Position numbers and translations under genes: made by a program
The notes under the pieces: model-generated
Told to the model about the DNA's origin: nothing
Databases searched by the model: none
The model's input: only the letters and a program-made list of their open reading frames with translations
In this document: positions 6,807 through 62,220 of the stretch, in pieces
Layout of the letters: every line of letters begins with the position of its first letter
Position numbering within the stretch: position 1 is the first letter of the stretch
NCBI GenBank assembly: GCA_964019415.1
Contig: OZ025879.1
Coordinates: 3,972,137-4,036,136, forward strand
DNA: 64,000 nt
Source: Ianthella basta
Taxonomy: Eukaryota; Porifera; Demospongiae; Verongiida; Ianthellidae
Direction of reading: 5' to 3'

Positions 6807-6999
6807 CTCCTCTAGTCCGGGCAAAGACTGAGTTTATTCTGGGAATCGTCAGAAATGAACGGAATACTGTAGATAGTCTACGCCAATAGGTACATATTAT
6901 ACAGGTTCGGAATTCCTTCTGACCGCAAGGGTAACCACAAACATGCCAACGTTCCCAGTCTGCTTCCATAGATTCGGAGTGGATTCAGTTCCCGTAAAG
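6807..6999. promoter_or_regulatory. Putative bidirectional promoter, integrin beta / FBXO45
   Basis: Only 193 bp separate the integrin beta ATG (6806, minus) from the FBXO45 ATG (7000, plus), so both core promoters and 5' leaders must share this interval unless untranslated upstream exons exist. No TATA box is evident. Inference from gene layout only. Confidence 0.4.
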
Positions 7000-8030
7000 A
7001 TGGACTCGGTGCCTGACGACATTGTCCTGTTAATATTTTCTAACCTAGATTGGCGGGATAAGATGTCTTGCAGTCAAGTGTGTAAAGTGTGGAATCGATT
7101 AATTGTCTCTGAGTGTACGCAGGCATGGCACGTTGCTTCAAAGGATGTCCTACCAACTTCGTCACTGAACTTTGATTTGATCCGTACCCTAGCCCCAAAG
7201 GATAAAATCAGAGCATTTTACTGTGGCTTCGGAAAAGATACTGTTTCTGATAACATGTATGTTATGCCAAATGGATTTACAGTTCACAGAAAGCCTGTTG
7301 CACAGTCTTCTGATATGGCCAGGGGAAGAGTAGGCTTTTCAGATGGCATACATCATTGGATTGTGCGCTGGGAGACGAAGAGTTTGGGGTCCAGTGCTGG
7401 TGTAGGTGTTTGTACCAAAAATGCCAAATTGCATGGTGAAGGATACTACACACTTGTAGGCGAAGACAACCATTCATGGGGCTGGGACATTGTGCGCATG
7501 AACCTCAGGCACGAAGGCCAAAGTCTTCAACAATTTCCACCACAGGGTGGTAGCAAGGTAATTGTAACCATACCACTGCTGATCAGCTGTACAGTATTAA
7601 ATGCCTGCTATCTAGTTTGCACAGTAGAGGTGTATACAGTTGGTGTAGGTTGGCAGAGCTGAGTAAATGCTACAGATGTTAGTGTTCGTAAATGCCACCA
7701 GCCTAAAAATGAATAGAGCTATTGGGTAATAGGCATAGCAGCATAGCAAAGACAATTGGCTCTTGATATACTTCAAAGCTGTTTGCTAACCATGTTTATT
7801 TCACACATGGTACTAGTTTCACTTCTCATACCCTGCAGATTTCCATTGGTGATGAAATTGGAATCGTGCTGGATGCTGACAGAGGGACATTGTCATTTGA
7901 ATTTAACAGTGTGTTTCTTGGTACTGCCTTCCGTGACCTACCCCACGCCACTTTCTACCCTTGCATTTCAGCAGTATATGGCGACTCCGAGATATCACTA
8001 GTGTATTGTGGCTGGCCAATGATAGGATAG
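7000..8030 (+). CDS. FBXO45: F-box/SPRY domain protein 1 (FBXO45 / Fsn-1)
   Basis: Two exons, 7000-7557 and 7839-8030, join in phase 0 (donor aag|gtaatt, acceptor ccctgcag) into 249 aa, close to the roughly 285 aa of vertebrate FBXO45. Residues 1-45 form an F-box (PDDIVLLIFSNLDWRDKMSC then CKVWNRL). The rest is a SPRY domain (GIHHWIVRWETKS, GVGVCTKNA, GEDNHSWGWD, DRGTLSFE, then AFRDLPHATFYPCISAVYG and SLVYCGWP). In animals this protein pairs with the PHR ligase PAM/Highwire to form an atypical SKP1-based ubiquitin ligase; the F-box binds SKP1 and SPRY binds substrate. I chose ATG 7000 over the in-frame ATG at 6943 because homology begins at MDSVPDD. It is divergent from integrin beta and convergent with eRF1, with 164 bp between stops. 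Confidence 0.95.
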
Positions 8031-8194: not shown

Positions 8195-9505
8195 TTAATA
8201 GTCATAATAATCATCATCATCTAAGGGGTCAGGTTCCATTCCCTGGAAATCAACACGATAGCGTAAAATGCCACCAATCCCACCAAAGCCTTTGCAAAAT
8301 TGCGAGCCTTCTTGTGAACGGTCAGTAACTATCTCCAGTGCAGCTCCAAACGTCTTGTAGTTGTTGGCTAACCATTCCAAAAGTGGCATTTTGTCGACAG
8401 TTTCATACTCCACACCAGAGTCTTTATCCACAAACAGCGTCCGATCCTTCTCTTGCTCAGGGGTGAGATTGAGGGTGATAAGTTCATCAGCCTCATGCTT
8501 CTTCAATATGTAACGAGTGACATTCAGATTCTCCCACACAATCAATGTTTCTATGGCACCCATTTCGAGTCCTCTCAATGTGTCATCTACACCAAAGCAA
8601 AATTTGCCAGTATCTTGAGATATCTCATCAAAGTAACGATTGATAAGCTTTTTTTCCTGAATGAATTTCACGTTAGCGAGCACTTCTGCGGATAATTCAA
8701 TTGCCTGATTGAAACCATTCTCTCCACCATAGGATACATCAACTACCTTCAGGATAACACCCTGCAAACGTGGATCAAACATATCTGACTGGCTCAGTTC
8801 GGTTTTAAAGTCAGCAGAACCTGCAATAATCAGCCCAGTTATGTTGGGTCGGTCATTGCTAATGAACAGTTGGACAGCTGTTTCAGCCACTTTTCGCAAA
8901 TAATTATGCCGTTTCTCCATTCGTAAGCGAGCAAAGCGCATTGCTGACTGACCACCACGACCATGCTTCTTAGGAAGATCAACTGTGAATTTGTGCAAAA
9001 CATCTCTTGTGTTGCCTGACAGTGTGCCAAAAAGTGCTCCATTTCCATCCATGACAATGAAAGCAAACTTGTTATCATCTGCTAAAAGAGCTTGAAGTGG
9101 TTCTGTGTGGAATTTGTTGTCACACAGGTAGAGTGAAGTATTGATTGGTTTGAATGGCTCAAAATCCATGTTGACCTTTTTTTCTTTCCCCTCCTCAGTA
9201 ACAATTGTTCCACAGTAGATGACAAGGCCATTGTGTGGTACCTTCGTGTAGAGTTTCAGTCTTTGCTGAACTGATGTAATTGCTCCTAAAACTGAAAGCC
9301 GATTAACTCGACTTTTGATGTTGGATGCAGTACCGAACTCATCTGCAAGCATCTTTGCAACCCGAGCTATTTGATCCTTTGGTGGGATGATGAGAGAGAT
9401 CATGCTTGTGCCATTGCCACGTGCAGCCTCGAGACTCTTAATGAGACGCTTGATTTTCCATATCTCCACATTGCGGTCAGCACCATCTTCCATTGCAGTG
9501 GCCAT
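8195..9505 (-). CDS. ETF1: Eukaryotic peptide chain release factor subunit 1 (eRF1)
   Basis: One uninterrupted 436-codon frame, the family's usual length (human 437), nearly co-linear with animal eRF1. It reads stop codons in the ribosomal A site and triggers peptide release with eRF3. Domain 1 carries the stop-decoding NIKS (about residues 62-65) and YxCxxxF (YLCDNKF, about 126-132) motifs. Domain 2 carries the catalytic GGQ loop (KKHGRGGQ, about residue 184). The C-terminal eRF3-binding domain ends in an acidic tail ([11 protein letters not shown]). Start ATG 9505 matches the family N-terminus. Three bases upstream is a good acceptor (ttcttgctgcag, ending at 9509), suggesting a 5'-UTR intron. 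It is the only gene here with an unbroken coding region. All key residues are intact, so it is probably functional. Confidence 0.97.
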
Positions 9506-9991
9506 ACTCTGCAGCAAGAAATGCAAAACCTCTGACCATATTATATATTCTGCACTAATGTGTTGGCTGTGAATGTGTACAAATTTGCTATGTGCATGCT
9601 TCCCAGCCAGCGTCACGTGATACGTGGCCACTCTCTTCTGGTGACCAAGAAAGAGCCAGTGGTGGCCATTTGCTTACCTAGATGGTGGTATAGTGTCTTA
9701 CAGTATACCAGAACACACCTGTACATATGTATATGCACCACTGTGTACCATATTCTGCAATTGCTATATAGCTGTACAGCCTTTTCTCATCAGTGCTTTA
9801 GTCATGCACATGGGTGTATGCATGCAGCTTGGTGGATGTGTACATGGGAAGATGCATAGCTGGAATAGGCATAAATTTTAGTTGCATGTAGTAGCCCTTT
9901 AGCTTGTTATTGCACATTCACAATTGCATAAAAATATGCAGGTGGAGAAAAAGAGGATGGTAGCAAGACCGCAAGCACAGCAAAATGTTGC

Positions 9992-11812: not shown

Positions 11813-12895
11813 TGTAGCAGAGACCTAGCACATCTATTGGTTTGCTGAGATCAGACATGTTGCTGTGTACTGTCCAGGTCCCGTAATGTCACAACATTGT
11901 ACATGTGAAGACCATTTAGGCTGTGCTGAACATTCTGATTGTTGTTGGCATTGAGACTGATCTGTGAACGAATCTGTAGATGTTCCGGTGTTACAACAGC
12001 TACAGGTGGGCTGCAATGCTGTGACCACTTGAAACCCGTGCTTCAAGGTTGTACTGTATGCTGGTAAGCTCAGCAGACAGCTAGCATGTTGCATGGGTCA
12101 GCGAGTCTGATGGATGGTAGCAGTGCAATGTCCTCTACCTCGCTATATATTTTAGATAGTGTTTACGAGCTGGCTGTACTGTGAGGCAAAGATATCCAAC
12201 TTCACAGCTCAAAGGAAGAGGTGACAGGAGGAAAATTTGCCGTGATCATTGAGCTTGAACTTGGGACTTATGCTCTAACGTTAAGTTTAGTCAAGAAAGC
12301 CACTGATCCTGGCCAAGGCAACTCGCCCTCCATTGCCTTAAGTAATAGCTATCTACTACTAGTTGAGTGCTGGTCCATGGACAGAAATAAGGGTATTGAG
12401 CGGAATCCACGCAGATCTTGCAGTGGTAGTGCATTTGTACGTACCTCAGATAAAACAAAAGTTGCCTGCCACAGTACGTATGAACAAGGAGCTGAATGCC
12501 AGATTGGCATGCTCATGCGTATGTACGTATTAAGGTCAAGCAGATGAAGTCCTGTATGATTCTGAGTCACAAAGCCCTGTATCCATCCAGGTTCATAAAT
12601 GAATATCTTCATTGATTAGTTTATGCTACTATAGAAGCCTTGAACTTTCTGCTTTCTTCAGTGTGTGCGTGCGTGTATATCAGCACTATGTAGTTTGCTA
12701 CTGTTTCTGCCATTTTCCCATCCAGTCCTTATGAATAGTCCATGTTGAACCACATAGGCGTCTGTCGATGGGGTGAGACAACCAAAGAAATCCAAGGAAA
12801 AATTAAGTTTTTGCATCACATAGAGTAAATCCAGGAAATCACTAAGTGCCAAATGTGCACTAATGTGCCAATTATACTCATGGCTCACATTATAT

Positions 12896-13075
12896 ATCCA
12901 GAAGTACAATTGTGAGCATTAGACGTAGCAGAATGAGTAGATGAGATGTACACCTCACTGCAGTTCCTCAGATTTTGTACAGCTGACGAAGGCCTATGTG
13001 GCCGAAACGTCCTGTCAATTGTCTATCACCCTTCTGCTACGTCTAATGCTCACTATTATACTTCTCTGGATTCGA
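12896..13075. repeat. Inverted repeat around a hammerhead-like core
   Basis: gtgagcattagacgtagcag (the first 20 of 22 bp, 12912-12933) is perfectly inverted at 13032-13053. The pairing continues imperfectly outward (tccagaagtac.. against ..tccagagaagtat) to give arms of about 40 bp around a 98-bp centre. The centre contains the ribozyme-like core at 12979-13015. There is no ORF. It could be the end of a Penelope-like element or a small non-autonomous element. Confidence 0.6.
12979..13015 (+). ncRNA. Hammerhead-ribozyme-like core 1
   Basis: Read as RNA: ACAG (stem I 5'), CUGACGA box, A, GGCC-UAUGU-GGCC (stem II, 4 bp), GAAACGUC, CUGU (stem I 3', pairs with ACAG). This has the order and boxes of a type I hammerhead with minimal stem III; ACGU is self-complementary, as in dimer-active forms reported in Penelope-like elements. 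One extra A between CUGANGA and stem II departs from the canonical core. Activity is untested. Confidence 0.5.
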
Positions 13076-14329
13076 TGAACATAGCAGTGAGCTTCTAAAA
13101 CTTTATATACGTACATAAGCATCATGACCACAAAACCATATGAAAACCTAACCCGGTGAGAACAGTATCGTTGTCTATGTTGGGATGGTGGTGGCAGTTT
13201 TGGAACAGTCGTGCTACTCCTGTACAGGACTGGAAAGCAACAATGAAGCATTGAACAAAAGAGAAGACACTGTACAGCTTCATAAATAACCATGCTTCTG
13301 AGCAAAAGTGTGCCTTTCTTTCGAAAGCTCTCTTGACGTTTCTGTGCTTGTGGTCTGCCGGCTGCATTCCTTTGTAGGTTAGAAGGTGCCGCATTTAGTG
13401 CCTATCATGACTCCCATAATGGCAAATGGCCAAGGGGGCCAGATGCCATTTTCAAATAACATAACACAACCAGATGAAACAAAATATCTGTCTGCATTGC
13501 AAATCGTTCATAGAACCCCTCCCAATTGTCTCTCGTAGGCCAACAGGTCGCTCAACCTCTGTTGTATTTGGGGCCGTACCTCGCAGGGGAATAGTTAGGT
13601 AAGCTACATAGTTTGGCACTACAATACTATTACTTAAACATGTTCTAGTAAGACCTTTAGTTCTTAGAATACAGGGCGAAATACGAAGAAAGATCATTTT
13701 GAGCCTAGCAAACAGAGAGTGTTGAGCGCTGCCATTTTACAATGTCCATCCATGAAAATTGGAGCTGTATCTCGCAGAAGAGTCTATTGTTAAACTTTTT
13801 ATGACTATCACTCTGTCAACACATGTTCATTAACACATTTTGTTCGACTGAGAGACGGGGAAACACTATTAGAGCTGATTTTAAGCTTTGTAAAGAACAA
13901 CATGAGAGCCGCCATTTGCAATGACAGAAATATATATATATACGCACATGAAGCCATTCGAATACATAAATCTGAAAACAATATAGGGGCGCCTTTGGCC
14001 CCCGTAAAAACTACACTCAAACTTTGGCCAGCTTCGCTCGTAGTTTAGCCAGTTTGAATTAATATTACTGCATTCTTCGTATTTTCAAATTTACTTGCGA
14101 GAGAAAGGGCCCATCAATCGCAGCGTGGTGTACCCTGTTGCAATTATGCGGTCAAAAATGAACCAAGAATCAAGACTTGAGCCTACTGCTCAGCTGATAT
14201 AGGGCGACCAAATGGCATCCAAAACGGACATAACGTCTTACATCACCCATCTCATCCACATGCCATTAAGTTAGCAATCATTATTAAACAGGGACTTCCC
14301 ACGGCTACCGGGGGTGCATTGAAGAGGGC

Positions 14330-45650: not shown

Positions 45651-48600
45651 ATGTGTCTGGCACTCACACTTGTATCCTTGCTATTATTCGTCTTTGAGGG
45701 AATTCCCCTTGCTGAGACTGCCTCTAAACATGCAGTTCATACCATTGTTCCAGCAAATGGAGTGTATGCCTCAAATGGAAGCAATTTTCTCAAGGATGTG
45801 GAGAAGAAAATATCTAAAATAGAGAAACAATATGAGCAGATAGGTCGAGATTCCTTGCCAAATGTTGACCCTCCTGCTCTTGTGCAAAAGGAAGGAGGAG
45901 GTCTACAACAAGATCACCTGGTAACAGAAGATGTACTGTCAAAGAAAAGTGGAAATAACACATCTCGTCAAGAAGCTGTTGTTGATGCCTTTAGGCATGC
46001 ATGGAAAGGATACAAGGACTATGCTTGGGGTAGAGATGAGTTGTCTCCCATATCCAAAAGCTCCCACCAGTGGTTCAACCTAGGGCTGACTCTAATTGAT
46101 TCACTAGATACCATGTGGATAATGGGCCTCCATACAGAGTTCTCAGAAGCCCGTGACTGGGTTGCAAAGGAATTGAAGGTGGCCCAGGATAGGAAGGTCA
46201 ACTTCTTTGAGACCACTATTCGTGTTTTGGGGGGTCTGCTGAGTGCGTACCACCTGTCGAAAGATTCCATATTTCTGGAGAAAGCAGTAAGGCACCAGCT
46301 CTTCACATACGCAATATCAGAATGCTTGTCTGTTGTGTGTCACATATTGCTCCACTAGGAAAACCTTTATTTATAGTCAGACTTTAAAAGTGTAGTTTAT
46401 ATGTTATAGTGTTGGGCAATCCATTGACACCACCAATAGTTTTGACACCCCAAGGGTGTCCATGGATTCGTATACTGTGCTGTGTTAGACAGTCCTAAGT
46501 GTCCTAATTGTTTGTATCATCTCTGCAGACAGACCTTGGTGATCGACTGCTAGGCGCATTCAATACTCCATCAGGCATTCCTTATTCTGATGTAAACCTG
46601 AACACAAAGAAAGGCTACAGCCCAATGTGGTCATCAGATAGTTCAGTTTCAGAAGTTACTACAGTTCAATTGGAGTTTCGAGACCTTGACTGGCTCACAG
46701 GGAAGACAGGAAGGTTTCAGGTGTGCAGTTGCATTCACATGCTTCCTTTCTGGTAACTCTATAGCAGGAAGCACCATTGTTACTGATTGGTACCTGTGGC
46801 CATGTATGGGAGTGTTAGGTATCTGTGAATAGGGTGTGAGAGGAACACTACATAATGGATTGAATTGGTAGGGAGCTGTGTATTAATTGAGAGTGAGTTG
46901 AAAGTTCATAAATGAATGTACAGTAGTTGAGGTAGCAATCCATTAGCAGGGGTTGGCCCCATTTTCTTGTGTTTGCTCCCCTGACATAGCAGCTAAGTGA
47001 TTGCAATGTTTTGAGGTGGAGATGCTTCTGTCATGCCCTGATTAATGTGGTGCACAAATTTGTTACTGTACAAACTGTAGCCAAATATGGCAATGAGGCG
47101 TTCTTATGTCATTTCTTGCTATCAGTCAGTCAGTGTCTCCACACCAGCTACCTCAGGTGAGGGTTTGTGTGGTTGCTTGTAACACTGGGAAATATATTAT
47201 TCTGTGCATACACATTTTAGTTCAGTCTGTGTCCTTCTCTTCATTTTGCACTTACCTTCCCTCTTGTGTTCATCATCAGTCTTCCTGAGTGTCCCTTTCT
47301 ACTCAACGCTGACAGCACTGCTTCTAATCCTAATCTCTTTGGGCTGCTCTCAGAGTCTGTCCCACCTTGTCACATCTCTTCTGTCATGAAGTGCAGCTTA
47401 CCTCCATTGTCCGAAATGTGCTTCTGTGCCTTCTCTGTAAGGTCCAAGTCTCACTCCATAAGAATAGTAGTGCGGCTGGAACCATAGATTGGAACAATCT
47501 CAACACTGTATTCTAAGTTCTTTGTATTCAGAACCATTTTTGAGGGAGACTTGGTAGAATGTACAGTTGGGAGCAATGAAAACTGCTCCTTCAATATGTG
47601 TACACATGTACAGAAATGCAGATAGCCAGACTGCACATTGAGCCTAATGCGTGTGTTTTGGCATCACAACTAATGATAGGATATCACAGTCAGCTGGAAT
47701 GTGGAGGCTGTGGATATCACTATGAGACGATGCACTATTCTGTGACTTCTTCAGTATGAACCGTGCTCGGATGTACAGTGTTAGGCTATGGTTAGTCACA
47801 ACTCCTTGGCAACCAAATGATGTCATAGTGCCTTTGAAGTGTATTCCCAATTGAATACCTACAACTGTACACTTCACAGGGTTTAGGTCAAACCTGAGTA
47901 TTATTGGTAACATTAGAACAGACTTAGCTAACTGTTGGAGTATGTACACTATAGAAGTCCCTGCACCTTGTCCGCTTATCAGCAGTAGTGAGGGCTCTGT
48001 ATGTCAGCAGTGACAGTTGCTGTGATGACTGCTAGGACCCATTGTTAGGTGGACTGGAATGCCTGGAATGTGATTAACAGGTCTGTGTGTTTACTCCCTC
48101 ATCATATCATTGCTTTATGACCAAACTTAGTCTATCGAGCTGGACCTCTTTTGCATCTTTGCTGGCCCTTGCTTCTAGTTTGATAGAACCCAACAGAGCA
48201 GGTCTAGCTCAATAGACTAAAGCAACCCCTAACAGTAGTCTCCTCTTGTCAGTATCATGCAGTAATGCAACTGAACATGTGAGGTGCTACATCAGGCGTG
48301 TGTGCGAGGCAATATTCTGTATCGTTCTAGTCAGTAGTTTAACTCATACTGTAACTTGCTGTATTCATTCCTTTGGGAAATTACATATCATGGGTTTGTC
48401 AAATTTCATAATTTGATGATATAAGCATGTAAAGTCTGTGTATAGTGATACAAATCATGAGCAGTAGGATGAATGTCACCACATGATGGCATATGCAGAG
48501 CAGGTTAGAATCAGAAACCTGTGTCATATCAGGATTAAGAGCAAGGAGACGGATTTAGACTGTGCTAGGCAGTTTGAAGATGTTCACTGTGCAGAGACAG

Positions 48601-60473: not shown

Positions 60474-60966
60474 ACCATAATAATATGCTGCACATGTAAG
60501 TATAGCATTGGCTTCAGTTGGCATATTTATGTTCAGCACAGTTGCAACTTGGTCAGTTCATAGCAGTTCACTTTATGCTTAAACCTGCCGGCCGCTTGAT
60601 TGAGATCAATTGGATTGATGTGAGACAGCTGTCCAATGGCAGAACCTCTTGACTTGTTTTACATGGGTACCAGAATGCATAGGTTTTAGGTAAAAGGCCT
60701 ATGCAGACAGGGCTATAGCTAAAGTTGCCTGTGTAAATCATTTGTCTTCCTATTAGAAGAATGTGTAATGAGTAGTTCAAGTATGTATTATGTAACATTC
60801 TGGGACTCAGTAAATTTAGTTATTAGCTAGTAACAATGAGTGATCTGACATTCACCTGAACAGGTAACAGCTAGCACTGTGACTGATTAGTGTGAAGGTG
60901 TTCCAAGAAGATTGCTATATAGTACAGCCCGCTCACGGTCATGGGGCAGAGATCTACGATAGGGGA

Positions 60967-61080
60967 ACATGTAAGACCTAGTAGACTAAGAGTTACATGA
61001 GGGGACATGTAAGACCTAGTAGACTAAGAGTTACATGAGGGGACATGTAAGACCTAGTAGACTAAGAGTTACATGAGGGG
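60967..61080. repeat. 38-bp tandem repeat, three copies
   Basis: Three identical units beginning acatgtaagacctagtagac and ending ttacatgagggg, at 60967-61004, 61005-61042 and 61043-61080. Identity suggests a recent expansion. Confidence 0.95.
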
Positions 61081-61149
61081 AGTCATATACGAAGGGGTAT
61101 TCCCGTTACGTAATGACGACTAACCCAGTAAATTGATTTGGACGTTAAA

Positions 61150-61239
61150 ATGGCGGATGACAGATTGCTCAAAAGAACGAGAACAGAATTTATTGAATTA
61201 GTGAAGAGGAAGAAGGCTGCTTTGACGACAGAGTTTCAG
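61150..61239 (+). CDS. Candidate short first exon, unknown gene
   Basis: An ATG in a good context (aaaatggcg) opens 30 codons (MADDRLLKRTRTEFIELVKR..ALTTEFQ) ending at a consensus donor (cag|gtatga). The peptide is charged and helical. No downstream exon could be linked, and it lies 20 bp before a hammerhead-like core, so it may belong to a mobile element. Confidence 0.3.
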
Positions 61240-61259
61240 GTATGATGCTAAGATAGCTA

Positions 61260-61304
61260 TTACCACTGAAGAAGGCAGCAGTTAGCTGCCGAAACGTTTG
61301 GTAA
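61260..61304 (+). ncRNA. Hammerhead-ribozyme-like core 2
   Basis: UUACCA (stem I), CUGAAGA, A, GGCAGC-AGUUA-GCUGCC (stem II, 6 bp perfect), GAAACGUU, UGGUAA (stem I, 6 bp perfect). It has the same order, the same extra A and the same ACGU as the core at 12979, but different stem sequences. This is the covariation expected of a conserved RNA fold. Cleavage would follow GUU. Confidence 0.55.
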
Positions 61305-61348
61305 AGAAATCAAATCGTTGGCTAGTGACTTCCAAGAGAACTACCATA

Positions 61349-62220
61349 ATCGCTGTTACTTGCGGCACTTAATCGTCCTATTGCGAACATCTTCAAGTTT
61401 TCCTGCCAGTTTGCTGGGTATTGAAGGACAGCCAAAGAAGTGCTGAACAATGCCCTGTATAGCGTATTCTGCTGCCTTTTCGTACTTCAAGTTTCAATAC
61501 CCTTTATTAACACTGTGTTTCGCCGTATTGTAGCATAGGCCTATAAATATGGCGGAAAACATTGTTAATAAAAGCTTTTAAAATGCGACGTACGAATGTG
61601 GCAGCAGAATTTGCAATACAGGACAGTGTTCTGTATTTTTTTGGCTTTCCTTCAATGCAAAGTAAACTGGCTGGAAAGCTGGGACGGGTGTGTTATGTAG
61701 CAATTTAGTATCGCCAGTGAAAGTCATCTTGCTGCCCAGAGAGTGCAAAGCAGGCTTATTGGATCATACCATACTCGCCTGGTATCCGTTCTATGCCTGT
61801 GCACTGTTCGGTAAAGATTGCTTCGGTGTCTGAGGAGAAAAAGGTTAAATACGAACGTCTATTCCAACGATGGCCGAAACCATATTTATAGGCCTATGCT
61901 ACAATATGGCGAAATACAGTGTTAATAAAGGCGTTTGAAACTTGAAGTACGAAAAAGGCAGCAGAATACGATATACAGGGCAGTGTTCAGCACTTCTTCG
62001 GCTGTCCTTCAATACCCAGCAAACTGGCAGGAAAACTTGGAGATGTTCGCTATAGGACAATTAAGTGCTGCAAGTAACAGTGATTATCTTGCCAGGAGAG
62101 CACAAAGCAGGCTAACTTGACTATACCATATTTGCCTTATGTCATTTATTCTTCCTTATCAAGTAAATTGTCACTTCTTGAAGTGTCCGAAGAGAAAAAG
62201 GCTAAATGTATTGTGAGAGT
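61349..62220. repeat. Three-copy repeat, one copy inverted
   Basis: A unit of about 200-330 bp occurs at 61545-61870, again at 61890-62220 (same orientation) and inverted at 61349-61545. Shared words: gcagcagaat, ggcagtgttc, caaactggcaggaaaactt, gttcgc. Reading the direct copies gives parallel peptides (QDSVLYFFGFPSMQSKLAGK and QGSVQHFFGCPSIPSKLAGK; then VSEEKKVKYE and VSEEKKAKCI), so it derives from a coding sequence of unknown family, now with stops. Confidence 0.65.

What the first reader, a model, noticed from the sequence alone, without database searches (positions are those of the whole stretch)
12979..13015. Hammerhead-like ribozyme core centred in a 22-bp perfect inverted repeat
CUGACGA, a 4-bp stem II, GAAACGUC and a 4-bp stem I occur in the right order, with a palindromic ACGU at stem III. 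Arms of about 40 bp on both sides invert each other. No ORF is present, so the unit could be a small RNA-processing mobile element, or the end of a Penelope-like element, which are known to carry minimal type I hammerheads.
Basis: partly seen in the sequence, partly recalled or inferred. Interest (0 to 1): 0.75.

Follow-up and report, generated by a model that had tools for sequence, protein, structure and literature searches.

The report
Penelope retroelement end with hammerhead motif
This is a small, old insertion made from two copies of the end of a Penelope-like retroelement joined head to head, one of which still carries a minimal hammerhead ribozyme motif; it belongs to a known kind of element, but its relatives in this genome preserve traces of how such elements insert.

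Summary
In detail: core, 4-bp stems I and II, palindromic ACGU and a perfect 22-bp inverted repeat are all present. Rfam gives no hammerhead score, but a covariance model from 14 cores of other families in this genome hits 12971-13023 at 53.3 bits. The genome has 2124 such cores against 36 for the reversed pattern. Stem changes are largely compensating.

The unit is a Penelope-like element (PLE) remnant. Its right arm aligns to the pseudo-LTR of elements whose ORFs have RT and GIY-YIG domains. L069 has the closer pseudo-LTR on both sides, inverted, around frames matching that protein.

The window insert is probably 12897-13102, with the PLE 'tail' on the right arm and TTATATA on both sides; the left boundary is less sure. 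Minimal hammerheads in PLEs and head-to-head pseudo-LTRs are in print, so this is a new member of a known kind.

Activity is not shown: the monomer prefers another fold and the unit holds one core. Many copies start 10-14 nt upstream of the core, near a predicted transcription start, rather than at the cleavage site.

The parts
12890..12896 (.). left copy of the probable target-site duplication, TTATATA
   Evidence: identical to 13103-13109; AT-rich, so weak alone; a decayed tail on the left arm, which would make this match chance, is not excluded
12897..12933 (-). left arm: inverted, 5'-truncated pseudo-LTR piece (matches the part of the pseudo-LTR downstream of the hammerhead), without a recognisable tail
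   Evidence: inverted repeat of 13032-13065, 94% over 34 nt; local alignment to the L069 pseudo-LTR runs 12877-12932, but five of seven comparisons with real arms stop at 12900, one at 12896 and one at 12878
12934..12949 (.). inner junction of the two arms; origin uncertain (filler or diverged arm)
   Evidence: not aligned to the pseudo-LTR by either arm
12950..13102 (+). right arm: pseudo-LTR piece with hammerhead core, body and tail
   Evidence: 83-88% to the arms in L069 and L070; 77-80% to the pseudo-LTR of PLE loci L059, L060, L061, L062, L064
12968..12971 (+). initiator-like TCAG; its A (12970) lies 13 nt upstream of C3, near where many other copies begin
   Evidence: the initiator reading is recalled, not from a call
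12979..12982 (+). stem I, 5' strand ACAG
   Evidence: compensating changes in other families
12983..12989 (+). hammerhead core C3-A9, CUGACGA
   Evidence: CM R1 match 12971-13023, 53.3 bits, E 3.8e-12
12990..12990 (+). extra A between A9 and stem II
   Evidence: A at this place in 59 of 63 distinct cores
12991..13003 (+). stem II GGCC/GGCC with loop UAUGU
13004..13011 (+). GAAA, minimal 2-bp stem III (ACGU, palindromic, no loop) and C17; predicted cleavage after 13011
   Evidence: cleavage itself not tested
13012..13015 (+). stem I, 3' strand CUGU
13071..13102 (+). PLE 'tail' (left limit approximate)
   Evidence: alignment; partner arms of other copies stop at the equivalent of about 13071
13103..13109 (.). 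right copy of the probable target-site duplication, TTATATA

Best explanation
The unit at about 12890-13109 is a short, non-autonomous insertion of a Penelope-like element. It consists of two pseudo-LTR pieces joined by their 5' ends (head to head), with 3' ends outward, probably flanked by one 7-bp target-site duplication. The right arm keeps a minimal type I hammerhead core; the left arm is cut off before reaching it.

How it most likely arose (inferred): PLE RNA is transcribed from the pseudo-LTR promoter, as a rule starting about 13 nt upstream of the hammerhead. The PLE protein (RT plus GIY-YIG endonuclease) cut both strands of an AT-rich target and primed reverse transcription on each. 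One cDNA began at the inner start site (no tail) and the other at the outer start site (tail). The two cDNAs met at their 5' ends.

The hammerhead, if active, would work as a dimer or with the protein's help. The insertion templates mostly look uncleaved.
For: Shown here.
(1) Homology: window 12956-13052 aligns at 77-80% with a stretch 408-420 bp beyond the GIY-YIG match in L059, L060, L061 and L064, and 12973-13052 does so 435 bp beyond it in L062. L062 has an unbroken 602-aa frame with RVT_1 (E 1.4e-12) and GIY-YIG (E 5.7e-5). Of 30 fetched GIY-YIG loci, 19 hold an exact core on the domain's strand, 18 of them 352-405 bp and one 556 bp beyond the domain; 5 more align to the window; 6 show neither.
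(2) L069 has the closer pseudo-LTR (83% and 86% to the window) as an inverted pair (535 nt, 94%) around frames that match the L062 protein: 80% over 111 aa in the RT, 75% over 36 aa in GIY-YIG.
(3) Units of the family insert whole: in 17 of 37 loci both ends were found; they share on average 8.5 nt of flank against 4.1 with shuffled pairing, 0 of 2000 shuffles as high.
(4) Orientation: of 31 neighbouring core pairs under 3 kb among the first 100 of 2124 listed sites, 27 are (-,+), 3 (+,+), 1 (-,-) and 0 (+,-).
(5) One-sided tail: 13 of 13 partner arms stop at query 53-62 of 96, while their partners run to 89-96; 10 of the 13 loci are not among those.
(6) Covariation.
(7) Start of arms: 26 of 45 core-bearing arms begin 5-17 nt upstream of C3; in a second set 15 of 37 begin at -17 to -9 and 3 of 37 at +29 to +33.

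From print: head-to-head pseudo-LTRs, a tail on one of them, TSDs (PMC3846280, passages); cutting and extension of both target strands, two RT start sites bounding the tail, AT-rich targets, protein-assisted hammerhead, uncleaved template in vitro (PMC11167929, main-text section).
Against: No Rfam hammerhead match at any threshold tried. The folded monomer prefers a GACG/CGUC extension (-14.8 kcal/mol) over open hammerhead stems (-10.8), and the co-fold of two copies is a long duplex rather than a hammerhead.

Pfam finds only the RT piece in L069, below its cut-off (25.6 against 29.6 bits), and nothing in the other two pieces; the GIY-YIG piece rests on its match to L062.

Within the window's own family the core is no better kept than its flank: mean majority share 0.900 (12975-13022) against 0.898 (13023-13065). 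22 of 45 cores are intact, a level that 17% of random flank sets reach. So the copies decay freely after insertion.

Two of the five covariation measures do not exceed the shuffles (pairs with a change on both sides, 217 of 500 as high; further pair types, 498 of 500).

The window's own left end is not firm. Its left arm is short, TTATATA is AT-rich, and one comparison of seven carries the arm on to 12878 as a decayed tail. Against four real tails the outward piece scores no better than shuffles in three (240 to 726 of 2000 as high) and marginally better in one (59 of 2000). The one-sided tail is partly built into its search pattern. Two of the 17 units share only 3 and 4 nt (L070, L085).
Confidence: 0.87

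Rival explanations
1. The head-to-head structure comes from self-priming: one cDNA folds back on itself and copies itself, giving an inverted pair, instead of two independent target-primed cDNAs.
For: PMC3846280 (passages) argues for self-priming from palindromes at inverted junctions. Many inner gaps here are tiny: 11 of 27 (-,+) pairs have 31 bp or less between cores, and palindromic junctions can be read in L079 and L089 (sequences printed).
Against: Fold-back copying predicts the same outer end on both arms. Here the partner arms lack the tail in 13 of 13 pairs, and the outer end of the tail-less arm corresponds in position to the inner of the two RT start sites described for the Anolis element (PMC11167929). 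Arm lengths differ: window -34 against +52, L003 -22 against +55.
Confidence: 0.3
2. The motif is a hammerhead relic that no longer cleaves, or is kept as a folded RNA or protein-binding site rather than as a catalyst.
For: Competing fold and loop-less stem III; an extra A next to stem II in 59 of 63 distinct cores; no clear excess of arms starting at the cleavage site (3 of 37 at +29 to +33); in the Anolis element, mutants of the hammerhead still insert (PMC11167929).
Against: The stems change largely in pairs and N7, the free position of the core, varies among families (C, T, A and G all occur). The fixed core letters themselves say little, because the search pattern required them. The Anolis PLE hammerhead does cleave when the protein is present (PMC11167929).
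Confidence: 0.3
3. It is a metazoan retrozyme: a small non-autonomous element whose RNA is cut by two hammerheads in tandem and circularised.
For: Small size, type I hammerhead, non-coding; metazoan retrozymes of about 170-400 nt co-occur with PLEs (PMC7229834, passages).
Against: Retrozymes are direct tandems. Here the neighbouring cores are inverted in 27 of 31 pairs and direct in 4 of 31, and the window unit has one core. The sequence is a PLE pseudo-LTR.
Confidence: 0.04
4. It is a DNA transposon remnant (MITE) with terminal inverted repeats.
For: Inverted repeats and target-site duplications.
Against: The arms are unequal, in the family only one has the tail, the shared flank words vary from 3 to 14 nt, and the arms match PLE pseudo-LTRs.
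Confidence: 0.01

Closest known systems
Penelope/Poseidon-type Penelope-like elements with minimal hammerheads (Cervera and de la Pena 2014; Lunse, Weinberg and Breaker 2017; both seen only as citations in papers read here)
   Same: RT plus GIY-YIG ORF in the family, pseudo-LTRs, core without a usable stem III, 30-40 nt tail
   Different: The window copy has no ORF, is about 206 bp and holds a single core. The extra A after CUGANGA could not be compared with the published consensus because those two papers are not held.
Adineta vaga Pen families (PMC3846280, passages)
   Same: head-to-head inverted pseudo-LTRs, tail on one of them, TATA and initiator motifs in the pseudo-LTR, palindromes at the junction, TSDs of 8-10 bp
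   Different: the word hammerhead does not occur in that paper; here short pseudo-LTR-only units are common
Poseidon from Anolis carolinensis (PMC11167929, main-text section)
   Same: hammerhead at the pseudo-LTR/ORF junction, two RT start sites that bound the tail, both target strands cut and extended
   Different: direct tandems are described there; inverted pairs prevail in the sample counted here
Metazoan non-LTR retrozymes (PMC7229834, passages)
   Same: small, non-coding, type I hammerhead
   Different: direct tandem repeats with canonical, full hammerheads and circular RNAs

Membership tests
[quoted passage not shown]
   (for the family; the window copy itself has no ORF). Placement of the RT in the PLE clade by a tree was not done
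Penelope-like elements | pseudo-LTRs, direct or inverted | tested here: met
   inverted pair in L069 and in the window
Penelope-like elements | optional 30-40 nt tail on one end | tested here: met
   family; window: tail on the right arm, none recognisable on the left, a decayed one not excluded
Penelope-like elements | target-site duplication of variable length | tested here: met
   for the family (15 of 17 units share 5 nt or more); for the window TTATATA only, AT-rich and weak alone
minimal type I hammerhead ribozyme | invariant core CUGANGA ... GAAA ... UH in type I order with stems I and II | tested here: met
   stems covary among families
minimal type I hammerhead ribozyme | stem II starts directly after A9 (recalled as the canonical rule) | tested here: not met
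   extra A at 12990; A there in 59 of 63 distinct cores. Whether the published PLE variants share it could not be read
minimal type I hammerhead ribozyme | match to an Rfam hammerhead model | tested here: not met
minimal type I hammerhead ribozyme | self-cleavage after UH | not testable with these tools
   needs a cleavage assay
metazoan retrozyme | hammerheads in direct tandem around the unit | tested here: not met
   single core in the window unit; neighbouring cores inverted in 27 of 31 pairs

The most novel reading that the evidence does not exclude
The small head-to-head units in this genome are the direct products of a two-sided target-primed reaction. Each target strand primes its own cDNA, one from each of the two RT start sites that bound the tail, on PLE RNAs that start at the pseudo-LTR promoter 13 nt upstream of the hammerhead and are not cut by it. 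The hammerhead would then act at another stage, for example to split tandem read-through RNAs. If so, the one-sided tail and the arm starts are a genome-wide record of a step in PLE insertion that is still unsettled.
Probability: 0.35. Interest if true: 0.5.

Novelty: new member of a known kind. Interest (0 to 1): 0.3.

Why it matters
Taken alone the window feature is an ordinary, decaying PLE insertion. Its relatives matter more. A 209-Mb genome with over 2000 cores, many of them in small units with readable ends, lets three open points be tested directly: how PLEs make inverted copies, where their RNA starts, and whether the hammerhead is cut before insertion. A review seen in passages calls the role of these minimal hammerheads unknown (PMC7761336).

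Tried and rejected
Rfam scans at the gathering threshold and at E up to 10 gave no hammerhead. The one match in 12850-13150 (MIR8041, 17.4 bits against a gathering score of 80) and the five microRNA or lncRNA matches in six related loci (best E 1.6e-5, L086, below its gathering score) are taken as chance or palindrome effects.

The idea that the core is under visible selection within the window's family was tested and not supported.

The idea that copies begin at the hammerhead cleavage site was tested. By alignment one arm begins exactly at the first base after it in L114 and one in L094, 3 of 37 lie at +29 to +33, against 15 of 37 at -17 to -9, so it was not adopted. alone could not test this because its 45 arms were chosen to contain the core. 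L104 and L105 look alike, so the arms are not all independent.

A general RT search returned only the best 150 of 3653 candidates and was not used. A PDB sequence search with the L062 protein gave nothing at E 0.01. The MITE and retrozyme readings were rejected for the reasons given under rivals.

Limits: the first-100 listing covers only contig C1 to about 9.5 Mb and includes pairs that look like duplicates of each other, so the 27 of 31 count is not made of fully independent events. The cores were found with patterns that fix the core letters, so only the stem positions are informative; pair 1 of stem II was left out for that reason. One search used 50 cores picked by hand from the listings and gave a stronger contrast (distinct stems 71 of 90 against a shuffled mean of 59.0, maximum 70) than the full set of 63 distinct cores, which is the count reported.

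Full report
OBSERVATION. The window lies in a 209-Mb genome, taken to be eukaryotic from its size and genes (G000:C12:3972137-4036136). The hammerhead core is present at the stated place: ACAG / CTGACGA / A / GGCC-TATGT-GGCC / GAAA / CGT / C / CTGT from 12979 to 13015. The perfect 22-bp inverted repeat is 12912-12933 / 13032-13053, inside arms of 34 nt that are 94% complementary. Folded as one RNA, 12900-13065 is far more stable than its shuffles (z -10.4); the arms form most of that structure. A pattern of the form CTGANGA...CGAAACGT is expected 0.00 times in 100 shuffles of the window and occurs twice, at 12983 and at 61266.

IT IS REPEATED. A stricter pattern, CTGACGAN{10,20}CGAAACGTC, has 170 exact hits in the genome against 2 for the reversed control. 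The general one, CTGANGAN{8,26}CGAAACGTH, has 2124 against 36. The first 100 listed places of each search (200 rows) fall into several sequence families with different stem II. They and the two window cores give 63 distinct cores. Pairs 2 to 4 of stem II are standard in 160 of 189 cells; for 33 distinct stems it is 75 of 99, against a shuffled mean of 64.5, with 4 of 5000 shuffles as high. In an alignment of 14 cores from other sequence families, 91% of cells are paired against 79% shuffled and 12-41% when slid; 21 cells change on both sides against 7.4 shuffled (0 of 500 as high); the number of pairs with such a change (5 against 4.3) and the number of further pair types (7 against 9.4) are not raised. 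Stem I reads ACAG/CTGT, GCAG/CTGC, ACAA/TTGT, GTAA/TTAC or ACCA/TGGT in different families; on 11 distinct stem I pairs, four of them broken somewhere or more, the total of 33 of 44 compares with a shuffled mean of 26.6 and maximum of 34. A covariance model from the 14 cores, none of them among the 45 aligned arms of the window's family, finds 12971-13023 (53.3 bits, E 3.8e-12) and 61254-61310 (20.3 bits, E 0.0054) in the window. Rfam does not recognise any of it as a hammerhead.

IT IS A PENELOPE-LIKE ELEMENT. GIY-YIG domains were found at 55 places. Of the 30 loci fetched, 19 carry an exact core on the strand of the domain, 18 at 352-405 bp and one at 556 bp beyond it; 5 others (L059, L060, L061, L062, L064) align to window 12956-13052 or 12973-13052 at 77-80%, 408-435 bp beyond the domain; 6 show neither. 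L062 has an unbroken frame of 602 aa with RVT_1 and GIY-YIG. A closer relative, L069, has a 535-nt inverted repeat at 94% around separate frames that match the L062 protein: 80% over 111 aa in the RT with a YVDD motif, 75% over 36 aa in GIY-YIG. Pfam sees only the RT piece of L069, below its cut-off. Its two pseudo-LTRs match the window's right arm at 83% and 86%.

ANATOMY OF THE UNIT. Alignment of 45 core-bearing arms (the window and 44 others) shows a shared body and, on part of the arms, a further stretch of about 35 nt. This equals in position and size the 'tail' that is optionally present on one of the inverted pseudo-LTRs in rotifer PLEs (PMC3846280, passages read) and that lies between two reverse-transcription start sites in the Anolis element (PMC11167929, main-text section read). 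Of 37 loci examined, both outer ends were found in 17, a tail but no left arm in 13, and no tail in 7. The 17 share on average 8.5 nt of flank at their ends, 3 to 14, against 4.1 when flanks are paired at random (0 of 2000 as high). In another search, 13 of 13 partner arms stop before the tail (query 53-62 of 96) while the other arm runs through it (89-96); 10 of these 13 loci are not in the set. In the window the tail is on the right arm. The left arm has no recognisable tail and TTATATA lies on both sides, which gives the insert 12897-13102. This left end is not firm: local alignment with L069 and L070 can be carried on to 12877-12878 as a decayed tail. Against four real tails the outward piece is no better than shuffles in three and marginally better in one (59 of 2000).

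ORIENTATION. Among the first 100 of 2124 places, 31 neighbouring pairs lie within 3 kb: 27 (-,+), 3 (+,+), 1 (-,-), 0 (+,-). Shuffled strands give 7.8 (-,+) on average and at most 18 in 20000. Some of these pairs look like duplicates of each other, so the events are fewer than 27. Rotifer PLEs are also most often head to head (PMC3846280).

WHERE THE ARMS BEGIN. Of the 45 core-bearing arms, 26 begin 5-17 nt upstream of C3, 4 at 18-40, 10 at 41-100 and 5 beyond. In a second set of 20 loci, fetched by the part downstream of the cleavage site, 37 arms were found: 15 begin at -17 to -9 and 3 at +29 to +33, one of them exactly at the first base after the cleavage site (L114); the left arm of L094 also begins there. 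Copies with longer upstream sequence, such as L074, L087, L088 and L091, show TATATAA and, about 30 nt on, TCAGTT whose A is 13 nt upstream of C3 (sequences printed; reading these as TATA box and initiator is recalled knowledge, and PMC3846280 reports such motifs in a rotifer pseudo-LTR). The simplest reading is that arms end where the RNA ends, at the promoter start, and that the templates were mostly not cut by the hammerhead. The window's right arm is one of the exceptions: it starts about 34 nt upstream of C3.

ACTIVITY. Not shown. As a monomer the core prefers a GACG/CGUC extension (-14.8 against -10.8 kcal/mol). Stem III is two pairs with no loop, so only a dimer could form it; a co-fold of two copies gives a long duplex. 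The window unit has one core only. Within the family, core and flank decay alike (0.900 against 0.898) and 22 of 45 cores are intact, as expected for dead copies. In print, the Anolis PLE hammerhead cleaves only with the protein and is not needed for insertion in vitro (PMC11167929), and minimal PLE hammerheads are said possibly to self-cleave through dimeric motifs, with unknown role (PMC7761336, passages).

VERDICT. Observation confirmed, PLE reading supported, known kind. What is worth keeping is the record of insertion in the relatives. The listings (titles and starts of abstracts) showed no study that uses the one-sided tail plus arm starts to argue for two-sided priming; the library holds open-licence papers only, so this is weak evidence of absence.

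Noticed in passing
window 61266-61298 (+): A second intact minimal hammerhead core with 6-bp stem I, 6-bp stem II and the same extra A; a pattern with its stem II letters has 9 exact hits in the genome, this one included. No inverted repeat that spans it was found in 60850-61700.
   Followed up: partly
cores in the genome listings: An A sits between CUGANGA and stem II in 59 of 63 distinct cores. Whether this is the norm in other PLEs could not be read.
   Followed up: partly
window 8195-9631 (-): Unbroken 478-aa frame with all three eRF1 domains, so without introns in that stretch; could be a gene or a retrocopy.
   Followed up: no
window 6943-7662 (+) and 45651-46358 (+): F-box plus SPRY frame, and a frame that holds the first quarter of a glycosyl hydrolase 47 domain.
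   Followed up: no
L015/L016, L019-L022: Identical cores of the GGCC-UUCG-GGCC type close together on contig C1, direct in L015/L016 and inverted in L019-L022, perhaps a locally duplicated array.
   Followed up: no
window 60961-61081: 38-bp tandem array, 3.2 copies, 98% matches, about 185 bp upstream of the second core.
   Followed up: no
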